A stretch of 64,000 nucleotides of DNA from Silvimonas terrae. GTDB lineage: Bacteria; Pseudomonadota; Gammaproteobacteria; Burkholderiales; Chitinibacteraceae. A program made the translations under genes and the position numbers. The notes beneath the pieces were generated by a model that saw only the letters and a list, made by a program, of their open reading frames with translations, was not told the DNA's origin and made no database searches. Where the stretch lies: assembly GCF_014202765.1 (NCBI RefSeq), contig NZ_JACHHN010000002.1:558001-622000 (forward strand), in the 5' to 3' direction. Every line of letters starts with the position of its first letter. The first letter of the stretch is position 1. This document shows positions 11,645 through 27,979 of this stretch, in pieces.

Positions 11645-11667
11645 CACTATCGCCGCTGGCGATAGTG
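11645..11667. repeat. Perfect 10-bp inverted repeat at the left edge of the prophage remnant
   Basis: CACTATCGCC and its exact complement GGCGATAGTG are separated by three bases. The hairpin lies precisely where similarity to the intact prophage begins (next bases match 18330 onward), so it may mark a deletion junction. No T run follows, so it is not an obvious intrinsic terminator. Confidence 0.5.
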
Positions 11668-11760
11668 GCTGTGCCCGTTGCGCTGGAAACCGTGAAGGCC
11701 ACCCGCCACGACACCGTGGAACGCGAAGCCAACAACGAAGCCGCAGCAGAGGCGGAGCGA

Positions 11761-12429
11761 ATGGCGAAGGGACGTAAACCACGGGCGAGTGGGGCGCCTG
11801 CGTCCCCACAAGTCAGCAGGGCGAACAAAGCCGACATTCGGGCCATTCTCGGGGCGTCCGGCTCCGGTAAAACCACGTATGTCATGCAACAGCTACGCGA
11901 GGACAAACCTGATCGGCTGTTGATCTGGGATACCAAGGGGGAGTTTTCGCAGGAGGGCTACGCCGCGCCGGTTCGGTCCATCTCTGAACTGGTGGCCGCC
12001 GTGCGCAAATCGGAAAAGTGGAAACTGGCCCTGATTCCGTACGGCTCCCCGAACGAGCGCCGCAAACTGTTCGATATGTTCGCCGCGCTGGCCTTTGCGG
12101 CAGGGCGCTGCACCGTGGTGGCGGAGGAGATATCTGGCGTAGCGGTGGGCGGAAAAATCAACGCCCCCGGCTGGCAGGACATCATCAACCGGGGGCGTAC
12201 CTACGGGCTTACTGTTTATGCGCTGTCTCAAAGACCGGCGCTCATGGACAAGGAAACGCTGGGCAACGCATCCCTGATCCGCTGCGGCCGCCCGGCTTGG
12301 AAAGCAGACGCCAAGATTATGGCCGATTGTCTTTTTGTGGGGTCGGATGAACTGCTGTCTTTGCAGGATCTTGAATTTGTACAGAGACAGAAGGGGTTGA
12401 CGCTACGAGGGGTTGTGCACCCTGAATAA
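11761..12429 (+). CDS. Packaging ATPase (P9-like), copy 1
   Basis: A 222-aa P-loop ATPase with Walker A GASGSGKTT near residue 31 and Walker B CTVVAEE near residue 117, almost identical to the product at 18447-19118 up to MADCLF, after which the last 30 residues diverge. Genes of this kind next to a double jelly-roll capsid gene are the genome-packaging ATPases of PM2/PRD1-type viruses. In this copy the upstream ORF is fused in frame (open from 11635), because the stop that separates the two frames in the intact prophage is gone. I chose the ATG at 11761 by analogy with copy 2. The 3' end overlaps the minus-strand gene at 12317 by about 110 bases. Confidence 0.8.
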   Translation: MAKGRKPRASGAPASPQVSRANKADIRAILGASGSGKTTYVMQQLREDKPDRLLIWDTKGEFSQEGYAAPVRSISELVAAVRKSEKWKLALIPYGSPNERRKLFDMFAALAFAAGRCTVVAEEISGVAVGGKINAPGWQDIINRGRTYGLTVYALSQRPALMDKETLGNASLIRCGRPAWKADAKIMADCLFVGSDELLSLQDLEFVQRQKGLTLRGVVHPE

Positions 12430-13117
12430 TGGTCACAGTCTGCACCGGGGCGGAGGAAGGCGTATTTGATGGACTACCTTCCTTGTCACTTTTCTCTCCC
12501 GCAATGGCGGCAACAATTCCCCAAATGATTGCGCCAAAAAACAAAACAGCAGAGAAAACTAGCACGGCATAAGCAATTTTTTGCGTCCGAACGTGGGCGG
12601 GCTCGCCGACTTTAATGCGCTTCCACTCAAAATCAATAATTGCACGACCAACTGTCATTATCTCGGCATGCCAAATAGCAAGAGCTTCTTTGTCAGACCA
12701 AAGTTCAGTCTGCTGATAAACACGATCAAGCAACTGATTCAGGGCGACATGCTCAGGTCTGTCGTTTAATCTCAGACTCAGTTTCATAACACTAAGTGCG
12801 ATTTTATTGAGCGCAGCCATTTTATTGTCTGAGAATCGGGCTACGTGTGCTTCGTGCAGGGCACGGTTCGTATTTTGTTCTGCCTCGCTTAGGTCAGCAA
12901 ACTCTCGAGTGATTCTTTGCTCTTGTTCAAACAGAGTGCTAGTCATCGTAAACACGGCTGTTAGCTCTGCCAGTTCCGCCCGCAAGCCATCCACCCACGC
13001 CTGACGAAATTCCGAGATTTTTTGTTCTTTAGATACCGTAGAAACCAAGAGAGCCACGCCGCCGCCCGCAGCAGCAGTCATTGCCCCGGCAAATACATTC
13101 ATTACGTCGGCACTCAT
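12317..13117 (-). CDS. Cargo membrane protein with two spans and a coiled-coil region (unknown)
   Basis: A 266-aa protein: an N-terminal hydrophobic segment (residues 5-27, MNVFAGAMTAAAGGGVALLV), a long alpha-helical, probably coiled-coil part (about 30-180), a second span at about 190-212 (AVLVFSAVLFFGAIIWGIVA) and a Ser/Thr/Pro-rich tail. I do not recognise the family. It is on the strand opposite to the phage genes, is visibly less GC-rich than them, and follows the 13159-13830 gene by 41 bases, so the two form a small operon. It occupies the slot where the other prophage carries an FRG-domain gene. A role in superinfection exclusion or defence is inferred from position only. Confidence 0.75.
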   Translation of the reverse strand: MSADVMNVFAGAMTAAAGGGVALLVSTVSKEQKISEFRQAWVDGLRAELAELTAVFTMTSTLFEQEQRITREFADLSEAEQNTNRALHEAHVARFSDNKMAALNKIALSVMKLSLRLNDRPEHVALNQLLDRVYQQTELWSDKEALAIWHAEIMTVGRAIIDFEWKRIKVGEPAHVRTQKIAYAVLVFSAVLFFGAIIWGIVAAIAGEKSDKEGSPSNTPSSAPVQTVTIIQGAQPLVASTPSVSVQIQDPAKTAVHPTPQKDNRP

Positions 13118-13158
13118 AATCTTCCTCGGTTCATTTATATTGAGCTAGTGAAAACGTA

Positions 13159-13830
13159 TCAAAGGGAGTCGGCTGTATCGTCTAATATTTTCCGCAATAT
13201 CCGGGCAAATTCTTCAACCTTGTTTTCAAGGGTCTCTCGTTCTTGGCCGTTAAGCTGAATCCAAGCCCTGAATTGCTCCGCTCTTGTAACTCCCACTTCA
13301 TTGCGGACATAGCCTAAATATGAGTTCACCATACTGACGATTTGTTGATGCATATCCGAAAAATGCACCTCTACATCAGAATCAAAGTAGATGGCGATTT
13401 TTTGCCATTCTGATCTAAGTGTGGCAACTGCCTTCTCAACCTTTTCTTTGCTCGGTGCAACGTCCCCCGCCGTGCCATGCCTTAGCAGGGCATATAGCCC
13501 GTCACGTGCGACAAGCAATATGCAATAAGCTTGCGCTGCTGCGTCCACCCTCTTTTCCCGAACCTTTAGGTAGGCAGCAACCGCTCTCTGCGACCGGACG
13601 GAGATATTTCCCGTCAATTCGGCAAGGGCAACCGCATGCTGATTTCTCAGCTCGGCAAGCTCCCGTTCTTGCGCTGCTCTCAGCTTGCTTTCAAAGGTGG
13701 AGAAACGCTCTTTGATTTTTAAGTCATATTCCCGCGCAACAACGAATTTGACTATGCCCCAAACGATTAAACCAAAAGCAGCCACACCGCCGAATACCTG
13801 AAAAAGCAGCCCGATAATCTCCTGCGCCAT
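13159..13830 (-). CDS. Cargo membrane-anchored coiled-coil protein (unknown)
   Basis: A 223-aa protein with one N-terminal span (about residues 8-31, VFGGVAAFGLIVWGIVKFVV) and a helical cytoplasmic part rich in Glu, Arg and Ala (ESKLRAAQERELAELRNQHA) that looks like coiled coil. It is first in a two-gene minus-strand operon with the 12317-13117 gene. Both proteins share the plan of N-terminal anchor plus helical domain, so they may act together at the inner membrane. No enzyme motif is visible and I do not recognise the family. Its start lies about 20 bases from the conserved phage leader, so the cargo has been inserted very tightly. Confidence 0.75.
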   Translation of the reverse strand: MAQEIIGLLFQVFGGVAAFGLIVWGIVKFVVAREYDLKIKERFSTFESKLRAAQERELAELRNQHAVALAELTGNISVRSQRAVAAYLKVREKRVDAAAQAYCILLVARDGLYALLRHGTAGDVAPSKEKVEKAVATLRSEWQKIAIYFDSDVEVHFSDMHQQIVSMVNSYLGYVRNEVGVTRAEQFRAWIQLNGQERETLENKVEEFARILRKILDDTADSL

Positions 13831-13861
13831 GCCACGATCCTTTCATAATCAGACGAGCGGG

Positions 13862-14000
13862 AAGGGGCATATTAGACGGGTGACCGTTACCCCACCAACT
13901 CCTAGATGACGCCCCTTTGCGGTGCGTTACTTTTTTGCCGATTCTTCGGGCTTGCAAGTTGTGTCTCACACATCAACCAAGCCCAAGGGAGGGCAACTCT
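13862..14000 (+). promoter_or_regulatory. Conserved two-hairpin leader before the 31-aa membrane gene, copy 1
   Basis: The stretch is conserved between the two prophages even though the cargo before it is unrelated. It contains AAGGGGC (13862) pairing with GCCCCTT (13911), then GGGCTTG pairing with CAAGCCC, with a small TGTG/CACA pairing inside the second loop, and ends in a strong AAGGGAGGG ribosome site. Likely a late-gene promoter/leader; the role is inferred. Confidence 0.5.
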
Positions 14001-14001
14001 G

Positions 14002-14097
14002 ATGAATTCCTATTTGAAAACCGCACTGGTGGCCATTGTTGCCGTCGCCGTTGTGATGCGTGTTGATCCGCTCAAAAAGGTCGTGATCGGCGCTTAA
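14002..14097 (+). CDS. 31-aa one-span membrane protein, copy 1
   Basis: The product begins MNSYLKTALVAIVAVAVVMR and ends with a basic segment (DPLKKVVIGA), so it is a single membrane span with a short positive tail. It differs from the copy at 19974 by only two residues, while the DNA has several silent differences, which shows selection on the protein. It precedes the capsid gene in both prophages and probably is a virion membrane protein. It has a strong ribosome site (GGGAGGG). Confidence 0.8.
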   Translation: MNSYLKTALVAIVAVAVVMRVDPLKKVVIGA

Positions 14098-14149
14098 GCC
14101 GGCCCATTTTTTCCGACAACAACAAAGAACAACAAAGGATCAATCGCAC

Positions 14150-14202
14150 ATGGGCATGCGCACGACAAAGTGCAGCCAGTAGTCGACATCGAGACTGGAG
14201 AC
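14150..14202 (+). pseudogene. Deletion scar: capsid gene start joined to a piece of the last prophage gene
   Basis: ATGGGCATGC at 14150 matches the start of the capsid gene (20111). From about 14161 the sequence instead matches 47892-47930, the minus-strand gene near the right end; in that frame it reads SLDVDYWLHFVV against ALDIDYWLHFVV. About 5.5 kb of prophage was thus lost in a single step. Confidence 0.7.
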
Positions 14203-14238
14203 ATTTTCGCCTTATCATCGCACCATCTTAGTTCTTTT

Positions 14239-14266
14239 AGTTCGTATAATGTATATTGCGAATTCT
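14239..14266. repeat. dif-like XerCD site A, between the two PM2-like prophages
   Basis: Arm AGTTCGTATAA, centre TGTATA and arm TTGCGAATTCT. The first 19 bases are identical to the site at 48214-48241, while the outer XerD-side arm differs. This is the pattern expected of a hybrid attachment site made by Xer recombination between host dif and a phage attP. Confidence 0.75.
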
Positions 14267-14292
14267 AAAGGGCCTTTTTTGGCCCTTTTTTA
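14267..14292. terminator. Bidirectional intrinsic terminator next to dif-like site A
   Basis: AAAGGGCC and GGCCCTTT form an 8-bp stem around a six-T loop, with T runs on one side and A residues on the other. It ends the minus-strand repressor transcript and insulates the dif site. Confidence 0.7.
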
Positions 14293-14325
14293 TTGCCAGT
14301 TGTAAGGGCAGGGGATTGGTCTTTT

Positions 14326-14655
14326 TTAAGCGACTGCCCGCTCCCATCGAAAGCAAGTTTTCCTAATAAATTCCTCCACTTCCGGCCCGCCGACCATTTC
14401 ATAAATCTGCATCCATGCAAAGCGACTTGCATCGTTTTGTGCTCGCTCGACCATCATTGCAACGTAAATAGGATGTAATGGGACATTCAGTAATCTTGCA
14501 ACCATGGTGGATGCATGTTCACCCAAATTGATGTTGCGGTGACGGTACGCAGAAACAGTGTTCTTATTGATCTCCAAAGCCTTGGCAAGACGGTAGTCGC
14601 TATCTATGCAAAGCTTTGATTTAACTGCGGAAAGAAGGAACTCTGTTGTCATCAT
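14326..14655 (-). CDS. Cro/CI-like prophage repressor
   Basis: A 109-aa protein whose first 60 residues contain a helix-turn-helix pattern: DYRLAKALEINKNTVSAYRHRNINLGE. The C-terminal half (LHPIYVAMMVERAQND) resembles small regulators that are common in filamentous and other dif-using phages. It is transcribed away from the early genes, with a 170-base divergent region that contains a large inverted repeat. It is the best candidate for the lysogeny repressor. The start could be Met1 or Met2. Confidence 0.75.
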   Translation of the reverse strand: MMTTEFLLSAVKSKLCIDSDYRLAKALEINKNTVSAYRHRNINLGEHASTMVARLLNVPLHPIYVAMMVERAQNDASRFAWMQIYEMVGGPEVEEFIRKTCFRWERAVA

Positions 14656-14765
14656 AACCGCCTACTCCGTTCGCGATGTTATGTAGTAATACGACATTTA
14701 TCGTCTAAAAAAAGGCTGCTTGCAACAGCCCAAAGCTCTTATGCAGCCCAATGGTCTGAGACTAC

Positions 14766-14826
14766 ATTACGCCCCGTAACACCCCTACCTGACGGGTGTT
14801 TATACCTCTTACTTACGGGGCGTAAT
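14766..14826. promoter_or_regulatory. Perfect 14-bp inverted repeat ending at the first early gene start codon
   Basis: ATTACGCCCCGTAA (14766-14779) is the exact complement of TTACGGGGCGTAAT (14813-14826). Inside the loop CACCC and GGGTG form a second small stem. The right arm ends one base before the ATG at 14828 and contains the only GGGG that could serve as ribosome site, so pairing would hide it. It may be an operator, a translational switch or an origin structure; the sequence alone does not decide. Confidence 0.65.
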
Positions 14827-14827
14827 C

Positions 14828-15028
14828 ATGGCGCAAGATGCCGCATCAATAGCAATGAAGCGCAACACTCTGGAATGCCGAATTGATGAAACCCGCGTTC
14901 GTCTTTTGGTTGCAATTGAATTGCAATCCATAGTCGCAAAGCTTCAAAAACTCAATTCCAGCGAGGCAATGCGGATTGGGGACGAATTGCTTGATTTGGC
15001 CGATGTGTATTTGAAGGGGAACGAATAA
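14828..15028 (+). CDS. Small early phage protein, 66 aa (unknown)
   Basis: A helical, charged 66-aa protein (RIDETRVRLLVAIELQSIVA ... RIGDELLDLADVYLKGNE) with no recognised motif. It is the first plus-strand gene after the repressor and overlaps the next start (TAATG), so it is co-translated with the 124-aa protein and Rep. It could be a regulator or replication helper. The start is directly beside a large inverted repeat. Confidence 0.7.
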   Translation: MAQDAASIAMKRNTLECRIDETRVRLLVAIELQSIVAKLQKLNSSEAMRIGDELLDLADVYLKGNE

Positions 15029-15402
15029 TGCGCCCCGACGATATGCCCCTGGTCGAAACCTCGCGCCTTGCCGCTCTGGCTCTGGTGAACCACATCAACC
15101 AACCTCAAGACACCGGCCCACGCCGCGCCTTCGTGCAAATGGAAGTGCCGGGCGCCCTCAAGGCTGAGGACCGGGATTTTCTTGTTCGCTACGCCCACCA
15201 ACTGACCGAATACGGCGGCCAACTGGAACGGATGGCCCGTGGTGTGGACCTGCGCGGCATTGACGGCGTTACCCAGGCGGAACTGTTTGCAGTGGGCCGG
15301 GCCTGCGGCACGCTCCTGCACAAAATCGGCGTGCGCCTTGAACAAGACAAGGCCGCCCGCATGGTCGGCAAGCGCAACACCCAACTGAAACGCGCCGCAT
15401 GA
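15028..15402 (+). CDS. Early phage protein, 124 aa (unknown)
   Basis: Second gene of the early operon; its start overlaps the stop of the first and its stop overlaps the Rep start (ATGA). The protein is soluble and mainly helical (DFLVRYAHQLTEYGGQLERM, ELFAVGRACGTLLHKIGVRLE). I do not recognise the family. Tight translational coupling to rep suggests a role in replication or its control. Confidence 0.75.
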   Translation: MRPDDMPLVETSRLAALALVNHINQPQDTGPRRAFVQMEVPGALKAEDRDFLVRYAHQLTEYGGQLERMARGVDLRGIDGVTQAELFAVGRACGTLLHKIGVRLEQDKAARMVGKRNTQLKRAA

Positions 15403-17207
15403 CTCCCTATCACGAACAGGTGCGGGCGCGTCAGGACTGGCGCGAAAACGCGGACCTTGACCGCCTACTGTCCGGGCTCCCGCAATCGCTTAAATCCAGT
15501 CTCCGCCGTCACTGGAAACAACTACGCGGCGAGAGCCGCGACGGCACCGCACTGAGCGAAGCAAACACCTTTGTCCGCGAGTTTGCAGAGCAAATGAAGG
15601 CGCGTGGCCTGCCCATCGCAAGCGATGATTTCGACCTTGGCCAACTGGCAAAGCGTCAATCACAGCGACTGGCCGTCATGTACAAACACGGCGCCCCGGT
15701 GCTTGACGTTCTGGCTGAGGCAGGGCGCTTTGGCATCGACCTTTACCCGGCCAACATGGAAGAAGCGCGGGCGCTGGCCCTGCGCGTATGTGATGAAGCA
15801 TGGTGGCGTGGGCGCCTTAAACGCAAAGTGACGGCCACCGTTGAACACGCCCATATACGCCTGCGCGACGTGTCGCGGATGGCTGATGCGTACATCACCG
15901 ACGAAACCAACACCCTGATCCGGAAGCGCCGCGAACGCTCCGCCAAGGCGCTGGCACTGGCGGAAGCAACAAACGAAACCGGCTACACCGCCACGCTGGC
16001 GGAACTGGCCGCCAAGGGCATGGCCAACCGGTCAAACCGTCGCACTGAACTCATGGTGCGCGTGCGTGGCATGGAAGAAATCGCCAAGGATTTGGCGTGG
16101 TCCGGGGTATTCCTGACCATTACCGCGCCGTCCTCTTTCCATTCGGTCAAAAGCAACGGCAGGGCCAACCCGAAATACAGCGGCGCATCGCCACGTGACG
16201 CCCAGGCGCACCTGTGCGGCGTATGGGCGCGTACCCGTGCGCAATGGAAGAAAGGCAACGTTGCGCCGTTTGGTGTGCGCGTGGTCGAGCCGCACCACGA
16301 CGGCACGCCGCACTGGCACGTGCTGCTGTGGGCGCCGGCTGACCGCATCACGGAAGTGGTGGATGTGGTCCACGCTCAGGCGCTGACCGTGGATGGCGAC
16401 GAAAAGGGCGCGGACAAATACCGCTTCAAGGTCGAACACATCGACCCGAAAAAGGGTTCTGCCGTTGGCTACATCGCAAAGTACATCGCCAAGAACATCG
16501 ACGGCTTTCGCGTCGGTGATGATCTGGAATCCGGCCTGAGCGCAGAAGAGGGCGCGGCGCGGGTTTCCGCCTGGGCAACCTGCTGGCGTCTGCGTCAATT
16601 CCAGACCATTGGCCAACCCCCGGTCACCATCTGGCGCCAGTTGCGCCGCGTGCCGGTTGAGGATTCCGCCGACTCCCTGCTGATCAACGACATGCACCGG
16701 GCCGCCGACATTGGCGACTGGTCCGCTTTCTACAAGGCCCATGCCGCACTGCGTAAAGCCGGCGTGTTCAAGGTCGGGTTTGAAAACGCCAACGACGTGG
16801 ATAAATCCACGGGCGAGCACATCACGCCCCTGAACAAGTACGGCGAAGCCAAGCGCGTCATAGCCGCGGTTGTCGTGCGTGACGCTGCCGGCCAGATCAT
16901 CGAGCGCGTACAGACCCGCGTGCATGAATGGTCTGTGAAATGGGGCCGGGCCGATCTGGTTTCCAAGACGCTGGCCCGCATTGAGGCCGGGTTTTCGGGT
17001 TTGGGTTTTGAGCGCAGCGGCGAAGCCGCGAGCACTCGGACCCGTGTGAATAACTGTAACCGCTCACCAGAACTGGAACGGTTGCAGGGGGAAGTTGCGG
17101 CGGCTAACGCCGCTTGGGAGGCGTCTTTGCACATCGTGCAGGCGCATTACGAAAAAATAAGGGGAAAACATGAAAACACTGGAAGCCTTGCAACAGGCGA
17201 TTGCTGA
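15399..17207 (+). CDS. Rolling-circle replication initiator (superfamily I, phage GPA type)
   Basis: A 602-aa protein. The metal-binding HUH motif is HDGTPHWHVLLW (His305-Trp-His307), followed by the two-tyrosine motif YIAKYIAKN with Tyr358 and Tyr362. A two-Tyr motif is the mark of superfamily I initiators, as in phage P2 gpA, phiX174 A and PM2 P12. Such enzymes nick the double-stranded origin and stay bound to the 5' end. The N-terminal 190 residues are helical and charged; the C-terminal end has another helical region (LERLQGEVAAANAAWEA). It is the replication gene of the prophage and its strongest link to corticoviruses after the capsid. Confidence 0.88.
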   Translation: MTPYHEQVRARQDWRENADLDRLLSGLPQSLKSSLRRHWKQLRGESRDGTALSEANTFVREFAEQMKARGLPIASDDFDLGQLAKRQSQRLAVMYKHGAPVLDVLAEAGRFGIDLYPANMEEARALALRVCDEAWWRGRLKRKVTATVEHAHIRLRDVSRMADAYITDETNTLIRKRRERSAKALALAEATNETGYTATLAELAAKGMANRSNRRTELMVRVRGMEEIAKDLAWSGVFLTITAPSSFHSVKSNGRANPKYSGASPRDAQAHLCGVWARTRAQWKKGNVAPFGVRVVEPHHDGTPHWHVLLWAPADRITEVVDVVHAQALTVDGDEKGADKYRFKVEHIDPKKGSAVGYIAKYIAKNIDGFRVGDDLESGLSAEEGAARVSAWATCWRLRQFQTIGQPPVTIWRQLRRVPVEDSADSLLINDMHRAADIGDWSAFYKAHAALRKAGVFKVGFENANDVDKSTGEHITPLNKYGEAKRVIAAVVVRDAAGQIIERVQTRVHEWSVKWGRADLVSKTLARIEAGFSGLGFERSGEAASTRTRVNNCNRSPELERLQGEVAAANAAWEASLHIVQAHYEKIRGKHENTGSLATGDC

Positions 17208-17370
17208 CGTTGAGTCGGCCAACATGATCAACGCCAAGGACCGGGCCGCCGCCGCATTGCGCGCCGTGTACGCCGTAGGCGCCGATCTGGCCGCGCAAGT
17301 GGCCAACGTCAACACCCGCCTTGCCGTGCTGGAGCGTCGCGCCGGCATCCTGCAACACACTGAGGGCTGA
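17170..17370 (+). CDS. Small helical phage protein, 66 aa (unknown)
   Basis: The 66-aa product is almost entirely predicted helix with an Ala-rich heptad-like pattern (KDRAAAALRAVYAVGADLAA). It starts inside the end of rep (38-base overlap) with a good AGGGG ribosome site. The family is unknown to me. Its position between rep and a zinc-ribbon gene places it in the early operon. Confidence 0.65.
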   Translation: MKTLEALQQAIADVESANMINAKDRAAAALRAVYAVGADLAAQVANVNTRLAVLERRAGILQHTEG

Positions 17371-17372
17371 CC

Positions 17373-17642
17373 ATGGCCACCGCTCGCGCAATGCTGGGTG
17401 AAGCGCCGTGCCTGTGCTGCGGCAAACCGACGCCGGTCAAGGAACAAGCCAACGGGCTGGCCATCATGACTTGCAACTGGTGTGACGTGAAAGTGCAGTC
17501 ATTCAGCAAGATTTCCGATGCCAAAATGCGCGCCCGCATCATCGGCGGCGCACCGGTCAAACCCGCCAGCCCCTCCCCGGCGCCAGCCGCTGCACCGGCA
17601 CCGGCAGCAGAGCCAGCGCGGCGAGGCGGGCTGATTCTCTAA
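17373..17642 (+). CDS. Small zinc-ribbon phage protein, 89 aa
   Basis: Two CxxC pairs, CLCCGK (residues 13-18) and TCNWC (34-38), are spaced as in a zinc ribbon, followed by a Pro/Ala-rich tail. Such small proteins often act as transcription regulators; PM2 has two small regulators between rep and the structural genes, and this could be an equivalent, which is inference. It starts two bases after the previous stop and overlaps the convergent gene at 17639 by four bases. Confidence 0.7.
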   Translation: MATARAMLGEAPCLCCGKPTPVKEQANGLAIMTCNWCDVKVQSFSKISDAKMRARIIGGAPVKPASPSPAPAAAPAPAAEPARRGGLIL

Positions 17643-17884
17643 TCGGCGGCGCCTTCGGTGTAAATCACACTGGCGATGCCTTTTTTGTCGGCAGTGTCGT
17701 AATAAATCCAGTCAAAGCCGCCCAACTGATCACGCGTAAGTGGGGCTGAAGCAAGAATTACGAGGCCGGGAACATCGAAAAACACACGCTTGAACATCAG
17801 TTCAGCGTCTGATGCCTGATCTTCCCGAACGATGGCCATGAGGATGGCGGGCAAGGGCACTTCTGAGCGGAAAAGGTCCGCCAT
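17639..17884 (-). CDS. Small minus-strand prophage protein, 81 aa (unknown)
   Basis: The ATG at 17884 has a clear ribosome site (GCAGGAGCG, seven bases before). The protein begins MADLFRSEVPLPAILMAIVR and ends TADKKGIASVIYTEGAAD. It is soluble and has no recognised domain. The frame stays open far upstream, but only because of GC bias; the ribosome site fixes the start. It lies against the phage transcription direction, so it may be expressed in the lysogen. Confidence 0.6.
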   Translation of the reverse strand: MADLFRSEVPLPAILMAIVREDQASDAELMFKRVFFDVPGLVILASAPLTRDQLGGFDWIYYDTADKKGIASVIYTEGAAD

Positions 17885-17962
17885 ATGCGCTCCTGCCCTG
17901 ATGGCATAACCAATGCTGCCCGCTGGCACGCGGGCAAATATTCTGAACATATAGGAAGAAAG

Positions 17963-18463
17963 ATGAGCAACGTTAATCAGACCAATTATGCGAATGGCGA
18001 GGAAATTAGCAACCCGTCTGTAGACGGTGGGCTTGATCCGTTTCTCGTACTGGAACATCAAGCCAGCCTGCACGATGCCGGCATTGCTGCGCAATACGCC
18101 GTGGCCACGGGCGAACCCGAACCCCTGCCGGCAGACCCTGCCGCCGAATTCGGCATTGTGCTGACCATGGCCCGCGCCGTGCTGGCGCCGCTTTATCCGT
18201 CCCTGAGCAAGGTTTACACCGACGACGTCATTGCCAATCTTAGCCGCGCTGCCGCGCCTGTCATGGGCAAATACGGTTTCACGTCCAACGGCTTCCTTGA
18301 AAAGTTTGGGCCAGAAATTACGCTGGCTGTGGTGGCTGTTCCCGTGGCGCTGGAAACCGTAAAGGCCATTCGCCACGACACCGCCGAACGCAAGGCAGCG
18401 CAAGAGCGCGAGGCCGCCAACGAGGAAGCAGCGAAGGCGGTAGCCAATGGCGAAGGGGCGTAA
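17963..18463 (+). CDS. Phage protein of 166 aa with a hydrophobic segment, upstream of the ATPase
   Basis: I chose the ATG at 17963 (AGGAAG ribosome site) over the upstream start. The protein has an acidic N-terminal part, then a weak hydrophobic segment near residues 118-135 (EITLAVVAVPVALETV) and a charged, helical tail (ERKAAQEREAANEEAAKA). It overlaps the ATPase start by 17 bases. A fragment of it is fused to the ATPase in the remnant prophage. Probably a virion or assembly protein. Confidence 0.7.
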   Translation: MSNVNQTNYANGEEISNPSVDGGLDPFLVLEHQASLHDAGIAAQYAVATGEPEPLPADPAAEFGIVLTMARAVLAPLYPSLSKVYTDDVIANLSRAAAPVMGKYGFTSNGFLEKFGPEITLAVVAVPVALETVKAIRHDTAERKAAQEREAANEEAAKAVANGEGA

Positions 18464-19118
18464 ACCACGGGCGGGCGGGGCGTCTGCCTCCCCGCAAGTC
18501 AGCCGGGCGAACAAGGCCGACATTCGGGCCATTCTCGGGGCGTCCGGCTCGGGCAAAACCACCTATGTCATGCAACAGCTACGCCAGGACAAACCTGACC
18601 GGCTGTTGATTTGGGATACCAAGGGCGAGTTTTCGCAAGAGGGCTACGCGGCGCCGGTTCGGTCGATTTCTGAACTGGTGGCCGCCGTGCGCAAGTCGGA
18701 AAAGTGGAAACTGGCCCTGATCCCGTATGGCACGCCCAACGAACGGCGCAAGCTGTTCGATATGTTCGCCGCGCTGGCTTTTGCGGCAGGGCGCTGCACG
18801 GTGGTGGCTGAGGAAATTTCAGGTGTGGCGGTGGGCGGAAAGATCAACGCCCCCGGCTGGCAGGACATCATCAACCGGGGGCGCACATATGGCCTGACTG
18901 TTTACGCCCTGTCACAGCGGCCCGCGCTCATGGACAAGGAGACGTTAGGCAACGCTTCCGTAATCCGGTGCGGGCGACTAGCCTGGAAGGCTGATGCCAA
19001 AATCATGGCTGATTGCCTCTTTATCCCGCAAGACGCACTTTTGCAGTTACACGATCTCGAATTTTACGAACGAGAAAAGGGCACTACGACACACGGTCAG
19101 ATCGTAATTAATCCCTGA
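18447..19118 (+). CDS. Packaging ATPase (P9-like), copy 2
   Basis: A 223-aa P-loop protein: Walker A GASGSGKTT at residues 31-39 and Walker B CTVVAEE at 117-123, followed by GRTYGLTVYALSQRPALMD, a sensor-like pattern found in FtsK/HerA-type packaging ATPases. Next to a jelly-roll capsid gene this is the genome-packaging ATPase of PM2-type phages. The N-terminal basic stretch KGRKPR may bind DNA. It overlaps the gene before it by 17 bases and the convergent FRG gene by 11. Zot-type assembly ATPases are a more distant alternative, but there is no membrane span here. Confidence 0.83.
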   Translation: MAKGRKPRAGGASASPQVSRANKADIRAILGASGSGKTTYVMQQLRQDKPDRLLIWDTKGEFSQEGYAAPVRSISELVAAVRKSEKWKLALIPYGTPNERRKLFDMFAALAFAAGRCTVVAEEISGVAVGGKINAPGWQDIINRGRTYGLTVYALSQRPALMDKETLGNASVIRCGRLAWKADAKIMADCLFIPQDALLQLHDLEFYEREKGTTTHGQIVINP

Positions 19119-19812
19119 CAGTGTCGTTTAAATGTGAGCACAGACCGTTCAGATCAGGGAATAGGGTCTTGGTGTTTATTCCCATTAATCGTAGCGATTC
19201 AATCATGTACCCCCTTTGTTTTTCCGGGATAACGAGCTCCGTAAGTCTGCCTTTAAGTTCTGTATTTTTGTCTAGAGGGACGTAGGTTTTTGTTCGACTG
19301 GAAAAACGGTGCAAGGTAAACCAACCTTGTTGGGCGTTTACCCGTGCATTGTTGTTTTTGGGCTGAACAAAAATCGTCTTCCCGGCGCCAAATGGATCGA
19401 AGTCGGGGGCGTGTGCGCGGGTCTCCGTTGGAGGGTCACTAAACATATAGACGTAGACATCGCCTTCTTTCGCATCTGCGCATGCGAACCACAAAGCGAC
19501 AAGAGGACTGGAGGTCCAGTCCAGCAGCCGTGTTTTCATTCCATGATGCTGAGCCACCACCATTAAATCCAAATCGCTTAAATTCGGGTTTGTGAGCAAG
19601 TGCGCTCCTTGAAGGCGAAACTGTTCAAGTAGTTTTTTTTCTCTTTCAATGGTGTCTTTCTTTGGATTGTCTCGGGCTATGTTGGGCACGAGATTTCCTC
19701 TTACAGCCTGTCCTCGAAAAAAAGCCAACTCGCCCAAAACAATAGGCCATTGAATTACTTCAATAAATTTTGAAAAACTCCCAACTTCATGGGATTCCAT
19801 TTCTTTTGCCAT
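19108..19812 (-). CDS. FRG-domain protein, prophage cargo
   Basis: A 234-aa protein with FFRGQ near residue 31 and the pattern AQHHGMKTRLLDWTSSPLVA (about residues 79-98), the two blocks that name the FRG domain (Phe-Arg-Gly). FRG proteins are found in phages and defence islands; their chemistry is not settled. It lies on the minus strand in the same slot that holds two membrane proteins in the remnant prophage, and is less GC-rich than the phage genes around it. I chose the ATG at 19812; the frame is open to 19863, inside the conserved leader. An anti-phage role is inferred. Confidence 0.82.
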   Translation of the reverse strand: MAKEMESHEVGSFSKFIEVIQWPIVLGELAFFRGQAVRGNLVPNIARDNPKKDTIEREKKLLEQFRLQGAHLLTNPNLSDLDLMVVAQHHGMKTRLLDWTSSPLVALWFACADAKEGDVYVYMFSDPPTETRAHAPDFDPFGAGKTIFVQPKNNNARVNAQQGWFTLHRFSSRTKTYVPLDKNTELKGRLTELVIPEKQRGYMIESLRLMGINTKTLFPDLNGLCSHLNDTVRD

Positions 19813-19833
19813 TTTCTTCTTTTCGACGAACGG

Positions 19834-19972
19834 AAAGGGGCATATTAGACGGGTGACCGGCACCCCACCAACTCCTGGATGACGCCCCTTTGCCGGGCGT
19901 TTCTTTTTTGCCGATTCTTCGGGCTTGCAAGCTGTGTCTCACACATCAACCAAGCCCAAGGGAGGGCAAAAC
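19834..19972 (+). promoter_or_regulatory. Conserved two-hairpin leader before the 31-aa membrane gene, copy 2
   Basis: AAAGGGGC (19834-19841) pairs with GCCCCTTT (19884-19891) with an inner GGGTG/CACCC pair. A second stem GGGCTTG/CAAGCCC surrounds TGTG/CACA, just before the GGGAGGG ribosome site. The inner pair of the first hairpin differs between copies (GGGT/ACCC against GGGTG/CACCC) but remains paired. Probably the late promoter region or a structured RNA leader. Confidence 0.55.
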
Positions 19973-19973
19973 A

Positions 19974-20069
19974 ATGAATTCGTATCTCAAGACCGCACTG
20001 GTGGCGATTGTTGCCGTTGCTGTTGTCATGCGCGTTGACCCGCTGAAAAAGATCGTGATTGGCGGCTAA
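19974..20069 (+). CDS. 31-aa one-span membrane protein, copy 2
   Basis: A 31-aa protein, MNSYLKTALVAIVAVAVVMR plus a basic tail DPLKKIVIGG, with one membrane span. It is followed 41 bases later by the capsid gene. PM2 virions have an internal membrane with several such tiny proteins, so a virion membrane role is likely. It is too short for routine gene calling but is conserved in both prophages. Confidence 0.8.
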   Translation: MNSYLKTALVAIVAVAVVMRVDPLKKIVIGG

Positions 20070-20110: not shown

Positions 20111-20295
20111 ATGGGCATGCTCAAGAAACAACTGAGCTTTATGAACGTGGCGCCGGGCGTGACGGCTACCGTCAATTTGCCGCTCGGCCCGACTTACGAA
20201 CGCTGGATTTTCAATTTCGGCGGCACCACGTTCAACAAGTCTCACCTGACCGATATTCGCCTGCGGGTGAATGGTCGCGTCATCCACCAGTGCAG
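20111..20295 (+). pseudogene. Major capsid protein gene, 5' part, broken by the transposon
   Basis: The first 61 codons, with the pattern GVTATVNLPLGPTYERWIFN that resembles the beginning of PM2-type P2 capsid proteins. The frame continues into the transposon end and is lost. Joining base 20295 to 42187 restores a 264-codon gene reading VIHQC|SGADLESLNAF, close to the approximately 270 residues of PM2 P2. Double jelly-roll capsid proteins form the icosahedral shell of tailless phages. Identification rests on length, N-terminal pattern and gene context. Confidence 0.75.
20291..20295 (+). repeat. Target-site duplication TGCAG, left copy
   Basis: TGCAG stands directly before the left transposon end and again directly after the right end (42182-42186). 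Five bases is the duplication length of the Tn3 family. The match is perfect. Confidence 0.95.
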
Positions 20296-20329
20296 GGGGT
20301 CATGCCGGGATGAAGCGGAATTTTACCCA
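20296..20329 (+). repeat. Left terminal inverted repeat of the transposon
   Basis: 34 bases that match the right end with two mismatches: the first 17 are identical (GGGGTCATGCCGGGATG), then AA against TG, then GCGGAATTTTACCCA in both. GGGG at the outer edge is typical for Tn3-family ends. Confidence 0.93.
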
Positions 20330-20512
20330 AATCCATTGCATCATATTGTATTTAAAAGAATAAAATTCCAGCCCCACTCTTCAGTGGATGCGTGGACTCA
20401 ACCGATACGAGGAGCAAGGCAACCTTGAATGATCGCGAAGTAACCCGAAGGGGTCGGGTTCTGCGTGATGTTTTTAGGCTCGACCAAGGACTTCCCCCCT
20501 CTGAAGTTCAGG

Positions 20513-20830
20513 CTATAGATGCCCTGCCAGCCCACTTGCGTACCGCTTGCGTAAAAACCGAAGTGCGGCCGGAGGATGTCGGTTCGCTGGATAACACAGG
20601 CAAGTCCCTAACGCAGAAGGACTCCCCTCCGGCAGCAAGTGGATCAGCTGGCCCTCTTTCAGATGATGGGCGACGTAATACTCCGGCACCCAGACAATGC
20701 CCACCTCCGCAAGTACAACATCCACCATTAACGCCGGATTTCCACGAAGCGCATGTCTGCAACCATTTCCACATGAATGTCCGGGTATGCAACCAGCCCG
20801 ATCACACTCAGGTCATGTTGCGTCCGAGGC
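20513..20830 (-). pseudogene. LysR-type regulator remnant (effector-domain C-terminus)
   Basis: On the minus strand the frame ending at 20513 reads LAEVGIVWVPEYYVAHHLKEGQL and later LCYPANRHPPAALRFL, the usual C-terminal pattern of LysR effector domains. Further upstream in another frame is YPDIHVEMVADMRFVE, which matches the middle of such a domain. The DNA-binding half is missing and the frames are broken, so this is a dead fragment at the left transposon end. The plus-strand open frame here (20392-20859) is its shadow. Confidence 0.6.
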
Positions 20831-20912
20831 AGGAATGGGCGGTCACCGCTCGTCCCTGAGCGGTCAACTGACGTAAAATATTGCCTCCCTTACACCAAAC
20901 AAGGCGGGCTAC

Positions 20913-21842
20913 GTGATCACACTGAATCCGGATCGTGAAGTTGTTCAGATCAATAACTGGGAGGACGTGCTGGCACTGCCCGCGTTTAACCCACGGCTTG
21001 ACCCCGGGGCACACAAACTCAAGGAAATCATTGCCGGGTACACGATGCCGGAGAACGTGAATTGCGGTCTGTCCAACTGCCGGACGCCCCATCAACAGGG
21101 GTATGTCGTTCAGACCGAAGATGGCATGGTCACAAACATTGGCAGCGTATGTGGCAAGAACTACTTTGGGGTGGATTTCACCCGGATGTCCCGAGATTTC
21201 GAGCAGAAGGTCAAGGACAAGGATAATCGGGAGCGGCTGGAAAAGCATCAGCACCGGGTGTCCGGTTACCACTCGAGAATCAAGACCCTCCGGGCTGGTG
21301 ACCGCGGCGGCGATTGGGTCTATCAGATGCAGGCCGCCCTGACGACTCCGAACAAGGGCGTACCCGTATTGATCATCCGGCAGCTCCGCGATCTGCAACG
21401 CACCGGCATTCGTGATGTGATGATGTCCCGCCCGGCGACGGAAGAAGAGATCAAGCTGGATGAAATCCGGCTGGGCGATGAGATCAAACAGCGGCCGTAT
21501 TTCATCAGCGCGGTGATCGGTACCGTGGTGGGTGCCGAAGTGCTCGGGTCGGAAGATAACATCAAGAAACTACTGATCGACGATCTCACGCTGAAGCTCG
21601 AAGAGTTCAAGCGGGTGAAAATCCTGGAACTGTCGTCCACGCAACTCACCCGCTGGAACAAATACTTTTCCGACGTGGAGCTCAAGCTGACCACAGCCGG
21701 GCGGATTATTGCGGGTATGCAGACGCTGGCCACGCGGGAGAATCTGGGGTTTCTGGAAGCGCTGCTGAAGGAAGACAAAGAGAAAGCAGAGTTTGAGCGC
21801 TTTCTTATCCGGCTGGATTCGCCACCAGCTTCGGTCGAATAA
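20913..21842 (+). CDS. Unknown transposon cargo protein, 309 aa
   Basis: A soluble protein with a Cys-containing region at about residues 50-82: NCGLSNCRTPHQQGYVV and later GSVCGKNYFG, which could bind a metal. The rest is helical and charged, with a possible coiled coil after about residue 95 and a helical C-terminal half (ELSSTQLTRWNKYFSDVELK). I do not recognise the family. It is the only plus-strand gene of the left cargo block and stands alone. Confidence 0.7.
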   Translation: MITLNPDREVVQINNWEDVLALPAFNPRLDPGAHKLKEIIAGYTMPENVNCGLSNCRTPHQQGYVVQTEDGMVTNIGSVCGKNYFGVDFTRMSRDFEQKVKDKDNRERLEKHQHRVSGYHSRIKTLRAGDRGGDWVYQMQAALTTPNKGVPVLIIRQLRDLQRTGIRDVMMSRPATEEEIKLDEIRLGDEIKQRPYFISAVIGTVVGAEVLGSEDNIKKLLIDDLTLKLEEFKRVKILELSSTQLTRWNKYFSDVELKLTTAGRIIAGMQTLATRENLGFLEALLKEDKEKAEFERFLIRLDSPPASVE

Positions 21843-22048
21843 CTGGCCGCAACTGCTCTCATAAATTACGCCCGAAAAGTCCACTTGTTCTCGGATCATA
21901 CTCACTGAGCTTTGAATTGTAAGCAAGGTGTGGATTGCATCCCGGCCAGCACCGCCCCCTTGGACGAGAGTGAGGGTCGGCAGGGATTTGCGTGAAAAAT
22001 AGCCACTTCAAAGTCAAGTCGTTGAGCACTGCCGGCAGTTGCTCGAAA

Positions 22049-22624
22049 TCAGCGTGAGGGCTCACATTGCCCTGATGGGTATTGTGTTTCATGGCGGCCT
22101 AGCACATCGGCGCTAGTTATGGAACAGAACAGGTTGTCGAACTCGGTCAAAATTCGACGGGCGGAGACATTTGCCCTTTCTTCCGGGTCGTTGACTAGCA
22201 AATCGCGGCCAGGGACGTCCCAGCCTGCCGGGCTGCGATCTGAGCCCACTGGCCTCTTCACACCTGGTTTTTCCATTTTGGCAGCAGGCATTCTGACGAT
22301 TGCCAATTGGTTCTTCAGCCTTTGCAGGTCCCCACCCAGCCGCTCGCTAAAACATTGCTTTGCCTGATGCATAGTTCTGACGACTTCATACGCTCCGAGA
22401 AGCCAAAGCCACATGAGAGACTCTGCCCTGTCAATGCGTCCGCCGTTGATGCACACGGCGGAGAAGCCTTGGTCCAGATTCTCTATAATTTCGTCCGCTA
22501 TTGTGCAAAGTACGTTCACCCGGCCTGAAAGGTAGAACGAGAATGCGCTGAGCGGGTCGCGCTCGAAAATCTGCTCTTCCGTTGGATTGAAAAGACAAGA
22601 CTGAAATCGCTCGCGATATTTCAT
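22049..22624 (-). CDS. Unknown transposon cargo protein, 191 aa
   Basis: Soluble protein beginning MKYRERFQSCLFNPTEEQIF, with a helical central part (MWLWLLGAYEVVRTMHQAKQC) and a Pro/Arg-rich C-terminal half. No known motif was seen. A shorter open frame (21859-22092) overlaps its end on the same strand but looks doubtful; the remaining 200 bases before the 309-aa gene hold nothing else I can name. Confidence 0.55.
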   Translation of the reverse strand: MKYRERFQSCLFNPTEEQIFERDPLSAFSFYLSGRVNVLCTIADEIIENLDQGFSAVCINGGRIDRAESLMWLWLLGAYEVVRTMHQAKQCFSERLGGDLQRLKNQLAIVRMPAAKMEKPGVKRPVGSDRSPAGWDVPGRDLLVNDPEERANVSARRILTEFDNLFCSITSADVLGRHETQYPSGQCEPSR

Positions 22625-22728
22625 GTCGGCGTTACCTTTGATCGGTGCTGGAGGCGGCTATTTTTGCCCACCCCCTCGGAAAGGTAAAAGTTTTCACATG
22701 ACGCTGATTTGTAGGTGACTGTCAGCCC

Positions 22729-23490
22729 TCAAAGGGCCCGGATAAATATGTGTAAAACCTGCCCTGCGCCTACAGGAGCCTCTTTGACTTCCAGGTATGG
22801 TTGCCGGCGGACGAGTTCACCAAGCTTTTTGCATCCATAATAGCGTGCGTCAAACGACGAATGATTCGTCAGGATGAATGACCCCACCGAAGCCAGAGGC
22901 GCCCAGCCGTCCTCGCCCGCCTTGGCGTCAACTGCGCCACGCAGAAGTTCTTCCAGCGGCGGCAGATTGGTGGACAGCCTCGACTCGATCGCCTTTGATT
23001 CCTGGATCTTCTGTGCCTTTGGGTCCGACGCGACCACGAGTGGTCGCAGTATCTCTGTAAAAACAAACTTGTCGCAGGCAGCAACAAAAGGCGCGGGAGT
23101 CTTCTGCTCTCCAAAGCCAAATACCGTCAGCCCAGACTCCCTGAGCCGGGTGGCGAGGCGCGTATAGTCGCTGTCTGACGAGACAATGCAAAAGCCGCCC
23201 ATATCGCCCATGTGCAGCAAATCCATCGCATCGATGATCAGGGCGGAGTCCGTTGCATTCTTGCCGGACGTGTATGCAAATTGCTGGATCGGCTGAATGG
23301 CTTGCGTATGCAAGACCTCTTTCCATCCCTTGAGGTTGGTGGTGGTCCAGTCACCGTAAGCGCGCTTGACATTGGTTGTGCCATATTTCGCTATTTCGGC
23401 AAGCAACTCCTGAACAATGGACGCTTGCGCGTTGTCGGCATCAATGAGGACGGCAAGCTTGAGAGTGGGGGCGGTTGCCGGGTAGGTCAT
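22729..23490 (-). CDS. NYN-domain (LabA/DUF88) nuclease-like protein
   Basis: From the ATG at 23490 the protein has 253 residues. The N-terminal 140 residues show the NYN/PIN pattern: LAVLIDADNAQ (first acidic pair), KNATDSALIIDAMDLL (second), CIVSSDSDYTRLATRLRESG (third). These Asp residues bind metal in NYN ribonucleases. The C-terminal part (residues 175-250) resembles the OST-HTH/LOTUS RNA-binding domain that often accompanies NYN in bacterial LabA-type proteins. So a role in RNA cleavage or processing is likely. It stands alone on the minus strand in the left cargo block. Confidence 0.85.
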   Translation of the reverse strand: MTYPATAPTLKLAVLIDADNAQASIVQELLAEIAKYGTTNVKRAYGDWTTTNLKGWKEVLHTQAIQPIQQFAYTSGKNATDSALIIDAMDLLHMGDMGGFCIVSSDSDYTRLATRLRESGLTVFGFGEQKTPAPFVAACDKFVFTEILRPLVVASDPKAQKIQESKAIESRLSTNLPPLEELLRGAVDAKAGEDGWAPLASVGSFILTNHSSFDARYYGCKKLGELVRRQPYLEVKEAPVGAGQVLHIFIRAL

Positions 23491-23680
23491 GGCATTCCTT
23501 GTTATGTACGGTTTTGCTTGTGCGTGGTTAATCGACTTGGCTTGCCGATACAGAGAAACCGGTGGCAATCAATCCACCTCGGGAATGGGGCCGACTCATA
23601 ACACGATTGCGGGCAGAAAAATAAGACCCGCATGCCCGCCAAAATTGAAGTCACAAACCCCTCCGAACGCTCCTGGAATA

Positions 23681-24535
23681 CTAGTGGAATTCCCTTTTGG
23701 CCAAAATCTCACCCGTCTTTTTCACGTAGTACACAACCTCTTTTACTTCGAACGGAATTGCCTGCCGCAGAACCACAACATCATAGGGCTGGTCTATAGT
23801 CGGGCTAATGATGGTTGGCGATCCCTCAATGAAGCTTGCTCCGATAATTTTTCCCACAAAAAGCACCGAAATCGGCTCCTTTGGCAGGGCCTTAGCTCGT
23901 GCTAAAGGGATGCTAAAACTGTCTTGGAATCCAGCCCCGTTTGACGTCATTAGCTGACCATACCAAGGACTGGTAATGTCAATGGCCAAGGCAAACTCTG
24001 TGGCACGGGTTCGACTGACGTCACGGCTTGAACCAAACGCGTTGCGGCCCGTGTAGGCGTCATACTTGCCAACGATTTCGTCGACCTCACATATCGTCCA
24101 CTGGTTATAAGGGCCTTTCGTGGTGCCGCATCCATAGCCATAGCGCGGGGTGTGGAAGACCTCTTGATCAGGATCATATTCGAATCTGGAAAGGCGCTCG
24201 AACTTCTTAATTTGAAATGCGTAGAGTGCACCAGGATTCAAAGGTGCTATCGCACGGGGCAAGTCCAACGTTCGCGCCTCATACTCATCCGAAGTTTCGA
24301 ATTCGCCCTTTCGCATGGATTCAGTTTTCTTCTCAAAAAACCTGTAAAAGGCGGTGGGGTTATTGCCTGAATAACCTGGCGGCAATCTCTCGGCCGTTGC
24401 ATCAAATGGGGTCGGCGGCCAGCCTTCCTTGTTTACTGACTTGCCTACACTTGAACTGGGTTTTGTCGCCTCGACACATGGTGTGATTGCTGTCGCAATG
24501 AGAGATGCAATAAGGAGGGTTGCTCCGGGTTTCAT
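23681..24535 (-). CDS. Secreted protein of unknown function, 284 aa
   Basis: An N-terminal signal peptide (MKPGATLLIASLIATAITPC, probable cleavage after VEA) leads to a periplasmic or extracellular domain. The segment MRKGEFETSDEYEAR is a recurrent motif of periplasmic proteins of unknown function. There are two Cys residues (CGTTKGPYNQWTIC) near each other that could form a disulfide. The cellular role is unknown. It is separated by about 160 bases from the DUF2971 gene on the same strand. Confidence 0.65.
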   Translation of the reverse strand: MKPGATLLIASLIATAITPCVEATKPSSSVGKSVNKEGWPPTPFDATAERLPPGYSGNNPTAFYRFFEKKTESMRKGEFETSDEYEARTLDLPRAIAPLNPGALYAFQIKKFERLSRFEYDPDQEVFHTPRYGYGCGTTKGPYNQWTICEVDEIVGKYDAYTGRNAFGSSRDVSRTRATEFALAIDITSPWYGQLMTSNGAGFQDSFSIPLARAKALPKEPISVLFVGKIIGASFIEGSPTIISPTIDQPYDVVVLRQAIPFEVKEVVYYVKKTGEILAKREFH

Positions 24536-24693
24536 GGCTGAGTTCCTGTATTTTTGGTTTATTTAATTTTTATTACTTTTACCAGCAAGCCCTGTTTTTA
24601 ACCGGATGTATTGCTATGGAGACAAGGGAAAAGTCCACGACGGCGGCATAAAATTTGTTCCTGTACTTACTTTTTATTGATAAAGATCGCACT

Positions 24694-25869: not shown

Positions 25870-25955
25870 GATATTGGTTGCACCTCAAAGGGGTCGACTT
25901 CGGCTCGGTCGCACAAAAGGCGACAGCATCCAGACGAGTCATAAAACCCAAAGGC

Positions 25956-26791: not shown

Positions 26792-26794
26792 GCT

Positions 26795-27811: not shown

Positions 27812-27851
27812 CATGGTCTCCGAGACACGAATTTCATACTGGAATACGTAA

Positions 27852-27865: not shown

Positions 27866-27979
27866 CTATTTTTCCTGAAAATAAATTTCAAAATCACCAA
27901 TTAATGAGGCGTGATAATGAATGATTATCAAGGGTGATGCCCTTGGTTGAGCACAATCACCCTCGACCACCTGAAAAAT

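What the first reader, a model, noticed from the sequence alone, without database searches (positions are those of the whole stretch)
12430..19830. A cargo slot in PM2-like prophages: unrelated minus-strand genes at the same place in two copies
Seen: between the ATPase 3' end and a conserved two-hairpin leader, one prophage holds a two-gene membrane/coiled-coil operon (about 1.4 kb) and the other an FRG-domain gene (about 0.7 kb). The flanks are nearly identical, the insides share nothing, and both are opposite in strand and lower in GC. This is the layout of phage-encoded defence hotspots (as in P2/P4). Inference: the slot carries genes expressed by the lysogen to block other phages.
Basis: partly seen in the sequence, partly recalled or inferred. 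Interest (0 to 1): 0.82.

Follow-up and report, generated by a model that had tools for sequence, protein, structure and literature searches.

The report
Swappable cargo slot in PM2-like prophages
Small tailless (PM2-like) prophages in this bacterium and some of its relatives carry different, reversed, foreign-looking genes at one fixed spot between the packaging-motor gene and the capsid genes; two of these genes resemble candidate anti-phage genes, but no defence has been shown.

Summary
At 12.4-13.8 and 19.1-19.8 kb, unrelated low-GC minus-strand genes (a 266+223-aa membrane/coiled-coil pair; an FRG-domain gene) sit between a PM2-type packaging ATPase (gene IX) and the late leader plus a 31-aa gene, the PM2 gene VII (P7) homologue. 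Corrections: copy 1 is a remnant beside a dif-like site; copy 2 is a fuller PM2-like prophage whose capsid gene is split by a 21.9-kb Tn3-family transposon. I delimited the interval in 39 elements: 7 hold a minus-strand cargo gene, 2 only a plus-strand gene, 30 none. In the window's genus 4 of 4 elements are filled, with unrelated contents. A genome from another family of the same class repeats the pattern in two elements (DUF2971 gene versus an orphan, plus YafO-type toxin genes). The slot is real and exchangeable but clade-restricted. Beside it lie a reverse promoter-like block (3 elements) and an intrinsic terminator (17 of 39; 0.4 expected). I read it as a lysogen-expressed accessory slot, plausibly inter-phage defence (FRG = PADLOC PDC-S15; DUF2971 = PDC-S31); function is unproven and the PADLOC enrichment is not significant. 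Such hotspots are published for Vibrio tailless prophages; this position inside the PM2 'self' block appears to be a new variant.

The parts
11654..12336 (+). left conserved flank of copy 1: end of the gene-h homologue and most of the packaging ATPase (gene IX homologue, ORF about 11761-12429)
   Evidence: 84.8% identical to 18321-19022; ATPase profile match
12317..13117 (-). cargo gene 1a, 266 aa, hydrophobic at residues 8-26 and 179-209; its end overlaps the ATPase 3' end
   Evidence: ORF list, hydropathy; no Pfam match above a cut-off, no PADLOC or NCBIfam match
13159..13830 (-). cargo gene 1b, 223 aa, hydrophobic N-terminus (4-34)
   Evidence: no Pfam match above a cut-off, no PADLOC or NCBIfam match
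13869..13898 (-). promoter-like block reading into cargo 1 (TTGGTG-16-TCTAAT or TTGGTG-18-TAATAT)
   Evidence: conserved in copy 1, copy 2 and G003; not reported by the consensus scan
13852..14001 (+). conserved leader upstream of P7 in copy 1; terminator hairpin weakened, not found by the terminator scan
14002..14097 (+). 31-aa P7 (gene VII) homologue, copy 1
   Evidence: translation; order as in PM2
14150..14165 (+). stub of the major capsid gene, copy 1
   Evidence: match to copy 2 ends at 14165
14239..14264 (+). dif-like (Xer-type) site between copy 1 and copy 2
   Evidence: 19-nt identity with the site at 48214
14326..14655 (-). regulator of prophage 2 (HTH DNA-binding/transcriptional regulator PHROGs)
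   Evidence: phrog_4441 4e-15, phrog_638 5e-11
15399..17207 (+). rolling-circle type replication initiator (Phage_GPA)
   Evidence: PF05840 3e-81
17373..17642 (+). small CxxC...CxxC gene, in the position of PM2 gene XIV
   Evidence: sequence, order as in the PM2 record; homology not tested
18447..19118 (+). packaging ATPase (gene IX homologue), copy 2
   Evidence: tblastn to PM2 P9 1e-10 and NO16 7e-19; profile
19108..19812 (-). cargo gene 2: FRG-domain protein, 234 aa from the ATG at 19812 (251 aa if the GTG at 19863 is used)
   Evidence: PF08867 4e-23; PADLOC PDC-S15 8e-82; FRGQ, QHHG and DWT present; ORF list
19842..19871 (-). promoter-like block reading into cargo 2 (meaningful only if the ATG start is right)
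   Evidence: not reported by the consensus scan
19825..19973 (+). conserved leader, copy 2: terminator hairpin 19881-19901 plus T-run, then a second long hairpin
19974..20069 (+). 31-aa P7 (gene VII) homologue, copy 2
20111..20295 (+). 5' part of the major capsid gene (PM2 P2 type), copy 2
   Evidence: profile match
20296..42181 (.). Tn3-family transposon that splits the capsid gene; TSD TGCAG on both sides
   Evidence: inverted repeats and TSD; transposase PF01526 5e-136 at 39062-42058
42187..42796 (+). 3' part of the same capsid gene; late genes follow to about 47.6 kb
   Evidence: sequence and ORFs
48214..48241 (+). dif site at the right end of prophage 2 (4 mismatches to E. coli dif, whose sequence is recalled)

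Best explanation
An accessory (moron-type) gene slot of a PM2-like (corticovirus-type) prophage lineage. It lies between the packaging ATPase gene (end of the early operon, by analogy with PM2) and the terminator/late leader in front of P7 and the capsid gene. Shown: unrelated genes occupy the same interval, reversed and lower in GC, between homologous flanks. Inferred: contents are exchanged by homologous recombination through the flanks (ATPase body on one side, leader on the other). Inferred: the cargo is read in the lysogen from a reverse promoter block kept in the phage leader, and is switched off on induction when early transcription runs over it from the opposite side up to the terminator. 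Inferred: the products mostly serve competition with other phages (FRG as an ART-superfamily, possibly NAD-consuming, effector; the membrane pair as an exclusion or abortive-infection type system) and so benefit both lysogen and prophage.
For: Swap between matched flanks with sharp edges: right edge at 13849/13852, 19825/19831 and 9805/9814 in three elements, left edge inside the ATPase 3' end. 4 of 4 elements of the genus filled, each differently; DUF6680 in G003. Independent repeat in G1121: flanks 77% and 86% identical, unrelated minus-strand genes, lower GC. In 7 of 9 filled slots the gene next to the ATPase is reversed. Terminator between slot and late genes in 17 of 39 against 0.38 expected. 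Promoter block conserved in 3 elements. FRG = PDC-S15, DUF2971 = PDC-S31; YafO toxin family in both G1121 slots. FRG genes reversed among late genes of P2-like SEN8 and at the right end of P22H1. Published precedent in Vibrio tailless prophages (PMC11630473, section 35 read).
Against: Most relatives are empty: 30 of 39. PADLOC matches at E <= 1e-20 in 2 of 8 minus-strand cargo proteins or 2 of 15 slot proteins, against at most 4 of 90 host ORFs; p = 0.07 and 0.20. The promoter block scores below the scan's cut-off in both copies, is not seen in G002, and for FRG depends on the ATG start. 22 of 39 elements, copy 1 among them, have no terminator by the rule used. All four elements of the genus look defective: remnant, Tn3-split capsid gene, truncated ATPase (G002), frameshifted ATPase (G003). 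The FRG neighbours on the two plasmids read show no clear defence island. No expression or phage data.
Confidence: 0.57

Rival explanations
1. A permissive intergenic site that accumulates arbitrary foreign genes (neutral morons or general lysogenic-conversion genes) because it is a place where an insertion breaks no operon; no defence function.
For: Position at the early/late operon boundary (PMC1950889 passages); most cargo has no defence match; a weak phospholipase A2-like gene in G770; most relatives empty.
Against: Reverse orientation in 7 of 9 filled slots, turnover in two lineages, PDC or toxin families in three of nine filled elements.
Confidence: 0.28
2. The reversed genes regulate the phage itself: antisense to the ATPase 3' end or maintenance of lysogeny, rather than acting on other phages.
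For: Convergent with the ATPase, overlap of 113 nt (copy 1) and 11 nt (copy 2); placed beside the late leader.
Against: The genes are unrelated between copies and absent in most relatives examined, PM2 and NO16 included, unlike a regulatory part.
Confidence: 0.08
3. Decay artefact: independent insertions and deletions in dying prophages happen to give different fillings.
For: All four elements of the genus look defective; in G002 homology to the ATPase and to the leader stops earlier than in the others.
Against: Edges coincide within about 10 nt in three elements, the cargo ORFs of copies 1 and 2 and G003 are open, and the same site is filled in G068 and G1121, where ATPase and capsid frames are open.
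Confidence: 0.07

Closest known systems
Accessory gene hotspot of tailless (Vinavirales) prophages in Vibrionaceae (PMC11630473; section 35 and passages read)
   Same: PM2-like prophages, one variable locus between core genes, contents rarely shared, partly defence genes
   Different: There the loci are often near prophage borders and one flanking gene is frequently a regulator; here the slot is internal, between ATPase and P7. Their Table S5 and Figure 5 were not seen, so the same position in some Vibrio cluster is not excluded.
P2/P4 antiviral hotspots (PMC9122126, PMC9519451; passages read)
   Same: Small loci of high turnover between conserved phage genes; FRG genes occur reversed in two P2-like phages, one of them in the region beyond the replication gene
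   Different: Phages of another realm with larger genomes, and defence was tested there, not here
Extra ORF in the IX-VII-II block of Photobacterium profundum SS9/3TCK prophages (PMC1950889; passages read)
   Same: Same block interrupted by an additional ORF
   Different: Named as the exception among thirteen elements; content, strand and turnover not described in the passages read; those prophages were not examined here
NO16 / PM2 corticovirus-type phages
   Same: Gene order ATPase-VII-capsid and ATPase homology; XerCD/dif integration proposed for NO16 (PMC9966536, passages)
   Different: Slot without a cargo gene (PM2 134 nt, NO16 192 nt)

Membership tests
PM2-like (Corticoviridae/Vinavirales) prophage | double-jelly-roll type capsid gene next to packaging ATPase and P7 | tested here: met
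   profiles and order in copy 2; capsid gene split by a transposon
PM2-like (Corticoviridae/Vinavirales) prophage | rolling-circle initiator and early operon order | tested here: met
   PF05840 3e-81; order as in PM2
PM2-like (Corticoviridae/Vinavirales) prophage | infectious virions | not testable with these tools
   both copies look defective by sequence
Prophage accessory/defence hotspot | different genes at one place between conserved phage genes in close relatives | tested here: met
   4 of 4 in the genus, 2 of 2 in G1121
Prophage accessory/defence hotspot | filled in most members | tested here: not met
   9 of 39 filled
Prophage accessory/defence hotspot | contents enriched in defence families | tested here: inconclusive
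   2 of 8 minus-strand, or 2 of 15 slot proteins, against at most 4 of 90; p = 0.07 and 0.20
Prophage accessory/defence hotspot | contents protect against phages | not testable with these tools
   needs bench work
FRG-domain protein (PADLOC PDC-S15) | profile match and FRG motif | tested here: met
   4e-23, 8e-82, FRGQ present
FRG-domain protein (PADLOC PDC-S15) | ART fold / NAD-consuming activity | not tested
   structure prediction switched off; activity proposed, not shown, in PMC9503650 (passages)
Tn3-family transposon (20296-42181) | Tn3 transposase, terminal inverted repeats, 5-bp TSD | tested here: met

The most novel reading that the evidence does not exclude
The ATPase-P7 junction is a purpose-built plug-in site: the phage keeps its own reverse promoter up to about the cargo's transcription start and a terminator beyond it, so any cassette dropped in is expressed only in the lysogen and is silenced by convergent early transcription on induction. 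Defective prophages at dif may then be trimmed to the cargo core: copy 1 and the G002 element both retain only end of gene h - ATPase - cargo - leader - P7 - capsid start beside a dif-type site.
Probability: 0.25. Interest if true: 0.7.

Novelty: new variant of a known kind. Interest (0 to 1): 0.5.

Why it matters
PM2-like prophages were described as keeping the IX-VII-II 'self' block intact with few exceptions. A swappable slot inside it would show that even about 12-kb tailless phages trade accessory genes there, and gives a short, easily extracted interval (anchor genes: ATPase and P7) from which to mine candidate defence genes such as FRG, DUF2971 and DUF6680 proteins and the orphan membrane pair.

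Tried and rejected
The 223-aa cargo has no plasmid relative; the 266-aa one has two weak ones, of which one was read, in ordinary plasmid surroundings. The 266+223 query matched 2 genomes besides the window's own among 399, with the 266-aa part only; their neighbourhoods were fetched but not analysed.

Rejected: 'nearly identical flanks' (85-86% over their length); two simple intact prophages (one remnant, one transposon-split); slot general to PM2-like phages (30 of 39 empty). A first terminator scan found 10 of 34, 0.66 expected, because it over-extended stems and looked at only part of long intervals; I changed the rule, and the later scan on 39 is the one cited. Leader covariation is uninformative: 1 of 35 pairs with a double change. 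The thought that the small remnants are functional satellites was dropped because G002's ATPase is truncated. The 266-aa protein and DUF6680 give only a 46-residue match at E 0.98.

Dropped before the count of 39: the duplicates L014, L033 and L084; L102/G1247 (no capsid match). Not examined: 10 further NO16-like records, one duplicate PM2 record, both Cr39582 records, phiG2 and phiKo. The filled/empty calls are my reading of ORF lists: shadow ORFs over P7 were excluded, small 30-45-aa membrane ORFs not counted, and the G002 content counted at about 70 aa; without it 8 of 39 are filled. The PADLOC control used 90 of 102 candidate ORFs of 130-320 aa from 15 stretches; it lists families, so 4 is an upper bound on members. 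The large genome searches scored only a few candidates per genome, so elements may have been missed. On re-checking I added the 2-of-15 figure and lowered confidence in the best explanation from 0.60 to 0.57.
Full report
WHAT IS THERE. Copy 1 (11654-14165) and copy 2 share homologous flanks around unrelated insides. The left flank is a packaging ATPase related to NO16 (31.6%, 7e-19) and PM2 P9 (30.2%, 1e-10). The right flank is a leader and a 31-aa gene that takes the place of PM2 gene VII (P7) directly before the capsid gene. Inside copy 1 lie two minus-strand genes (266 and 223 aa) with hydrophobic stretches and no Pfam match above a curated cut-off, nor a PADLOC or NCBIfam match. Inside copy 2 lies one FRG-domain gene (PF08867 4e-23; PADLOC PDC-S15 8e-82). 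I take its start as the ATG at 19812; the ORF list extends it to a GTG at 19863. GC is 48.5 and 45.8% against about 60% for the ATPases.

THE ELEMENTS. A capsid profile found the first part of copy 2's capsid gene from 20111 and the rest at 42176-42793. Between them is a Tn3-family transposon, 20296-42181, with matching ends, a TGCAG duplication and a Tn3 transposase (5e-136). Prophage 2 therefore runs from about 14.25 to 48.24 kb, roughly 12 kb without the transposon, between a dif-like site at 14239 and a dif site at 48214. It has a regulator, a Phage_GPA initiator and late genes. Copy 1 is a remnant ending beside the 14239 site; a 26-nt match (92%) of 14161-14186 to 47888-47913 just before that site fits a deletion from the capsid start to near the right end. 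Read between its flanks, the capsid frame is continuous across the transposon site.

SURVEY. ATPase searches gave matches in 3 of 4 genomes of the genus, 7 of 43 of the family, 9 of 399 of the order, 4 of 369 of the class, and in families around other hits 4 of 61, 1 of 5, 13 of 245, 1 of 22, 1 of 20 and 6 of 246. These sets overlap, all but the small families are samples, and the window's own genome is counted in the first four. The family contains Andreprevotia lacus, Chitinibacteraceae. I delimited the ATPase-stop-to-P7 interval in 39 elements (list). Seven hold a minus-strand cargo gene: copies 1 and 2, G002 (about 70 aa before it runs into the ATPase), G003 (DUF6680, 7e-41), G068 (131 aa), G1121a (DUF2971, 2e-10) and G1121b (187-aa orphan). 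Two hold only a plus-strand gene: G073 (about 93 aa) and G770 (119 aa, weak phospholipase A2 match). Thirty, including PM2 and NO16, hold none of about 70 aa or more.

REPEAT IN A SECOND LINEAGE. G1121, of another family in the same class, carries two related elements. Their ATPases are 90% identical over 200 aa and the DNA beyond the slot is 86% identical over 391 nt, yet the minus-strand genes next to the ATPase are unrelated, at 35-37% GC against 46-48% for the ATPases. Both slots also hold plus-strand genes with a YafO-family toxin, 37% identical between the two.

EDGES AND SIGNALS. In copy 1, copy 2 and G003 the right edge of homology falls within about 10 nt of the same leader position, and the left edge lies within the last about 100 nt of the ATPase. 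Just inside the right edge a minus-strand block TTGGTG-16-TCTAAT (or TTGGTG-18-TAATAT) is kept in all three while its spacer varies. In G002 homology to the leader begins only beyond this block. A + strand terminator-like hairpin lies between slot and P7 in 17 of 39 elements; shuffles predict 0.38. It is absent by this rule in copy 1 (hairpin weakened) and in 21 others, among them 12 of 14 elements of the G140 family. The leader's second hairpin is conserved in sequence but gives no covariation support.

HOW IT LIKELY WORKS. PM2 has two early operons and one late operon, with the late promoter region between IX and VII (PMC1950889, passages). By analogy the slot sits at the early/late boundary, reversed. 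The simplest model: the repressed prophage expresses the cargo from the leader's reverse promoter; on induction early transcription runs into the cargo from the other side and stops at the terminator before the late genes. Exchange would go by recombination in the ATPase and leader. All of this paragraph after the first sentence is inference.

FUNCTION. For defence: PDC-S15 and PDC-S31 matches; FRG genes reversed in P2-like phages, between gpS- and gpV-like genes in SEN8 and beyond the replication region near the right end in P22H1, the latter consistent with the hotspot between replication endonuclease and portal genes described in PMC9519451 (passages; the P22H1 protein is 454 aa long and aligns over 44% of the query); the FRG/ART proposal (PMC9503650, passages). 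Against: at E 1e-20, 2 of 8 minus-strand cargo proteins or 2 of all 15 slot proteins scanned match PADLOC, against at most 4 of 90 host ORFs: p = 0.07 and 0.20. The PDC names are, as I recall them, computational candidates.

KNOWN OR NEW. Steensen et al. 2024 (PMC11630473; section 35 read; author name recalled) report one variable locus in tailless prophages of Vibrionaceae (identified in 76.7% of unique tailless prophages), 18.6% of loci with putatively complete defence systems, often near prophage borders. Krupovic and Bamford 2007 (PMC1950889, passages; author names recalled) found the II/IX block as in PM2 in thirteen prophages except for an additional ORF in two of Photobacterium profundum. 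My literature searches (listings, except for the papers cited and PMC9502842, of which passages were read) did not show this slot described. I call it a new variant of a known kind.

Noticed in passing
20296-42181: 21.9-kb Tn3-family transposon inside the capsid gene, carrying an OLD-like ATPase (27980-29923, PADLOC Old 4.8e-53), a DUF2971 gene (24694-25869), a recombinase-like gene (29946-30944, by eye) and an oxidoreductase/hydrolase-like block (by eye).
   Followed up: partly
48214-52720: Beyond the dif site lie a Zot-like gene (49776-50951, -) and a coat-type gene, as of a filamentous prophage; dif appears to hold an array of phages. Judged by eye only.
   Followed up: no
46222-46626: Second minus-strand accessory gene of prophage 2, beside the SLT lysozyme (45584-46225); weak match to a spackle periplasmic protein family (0.005).
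   Followed up: no
L015 (G002), oriented 8807-10015: Remnant with almost the same left break as copy 1 (copy 2 coordinates 18338 and 18321), cut in the capsid start and followed closely by a dif site.
   Followed up: partly
L038, L039, L072-L076: In these elements of the G140 family one or two extra small membrane-type genes lie between ATPase and capsid gene.
   Followed up: no
10845-11603: 252-aa orphan ORF between type VI secretion-type genes (named by eye) and the copy 1 remnant; no Pfam or PADLOC match and only a weak PHROG.
   Followed up: no
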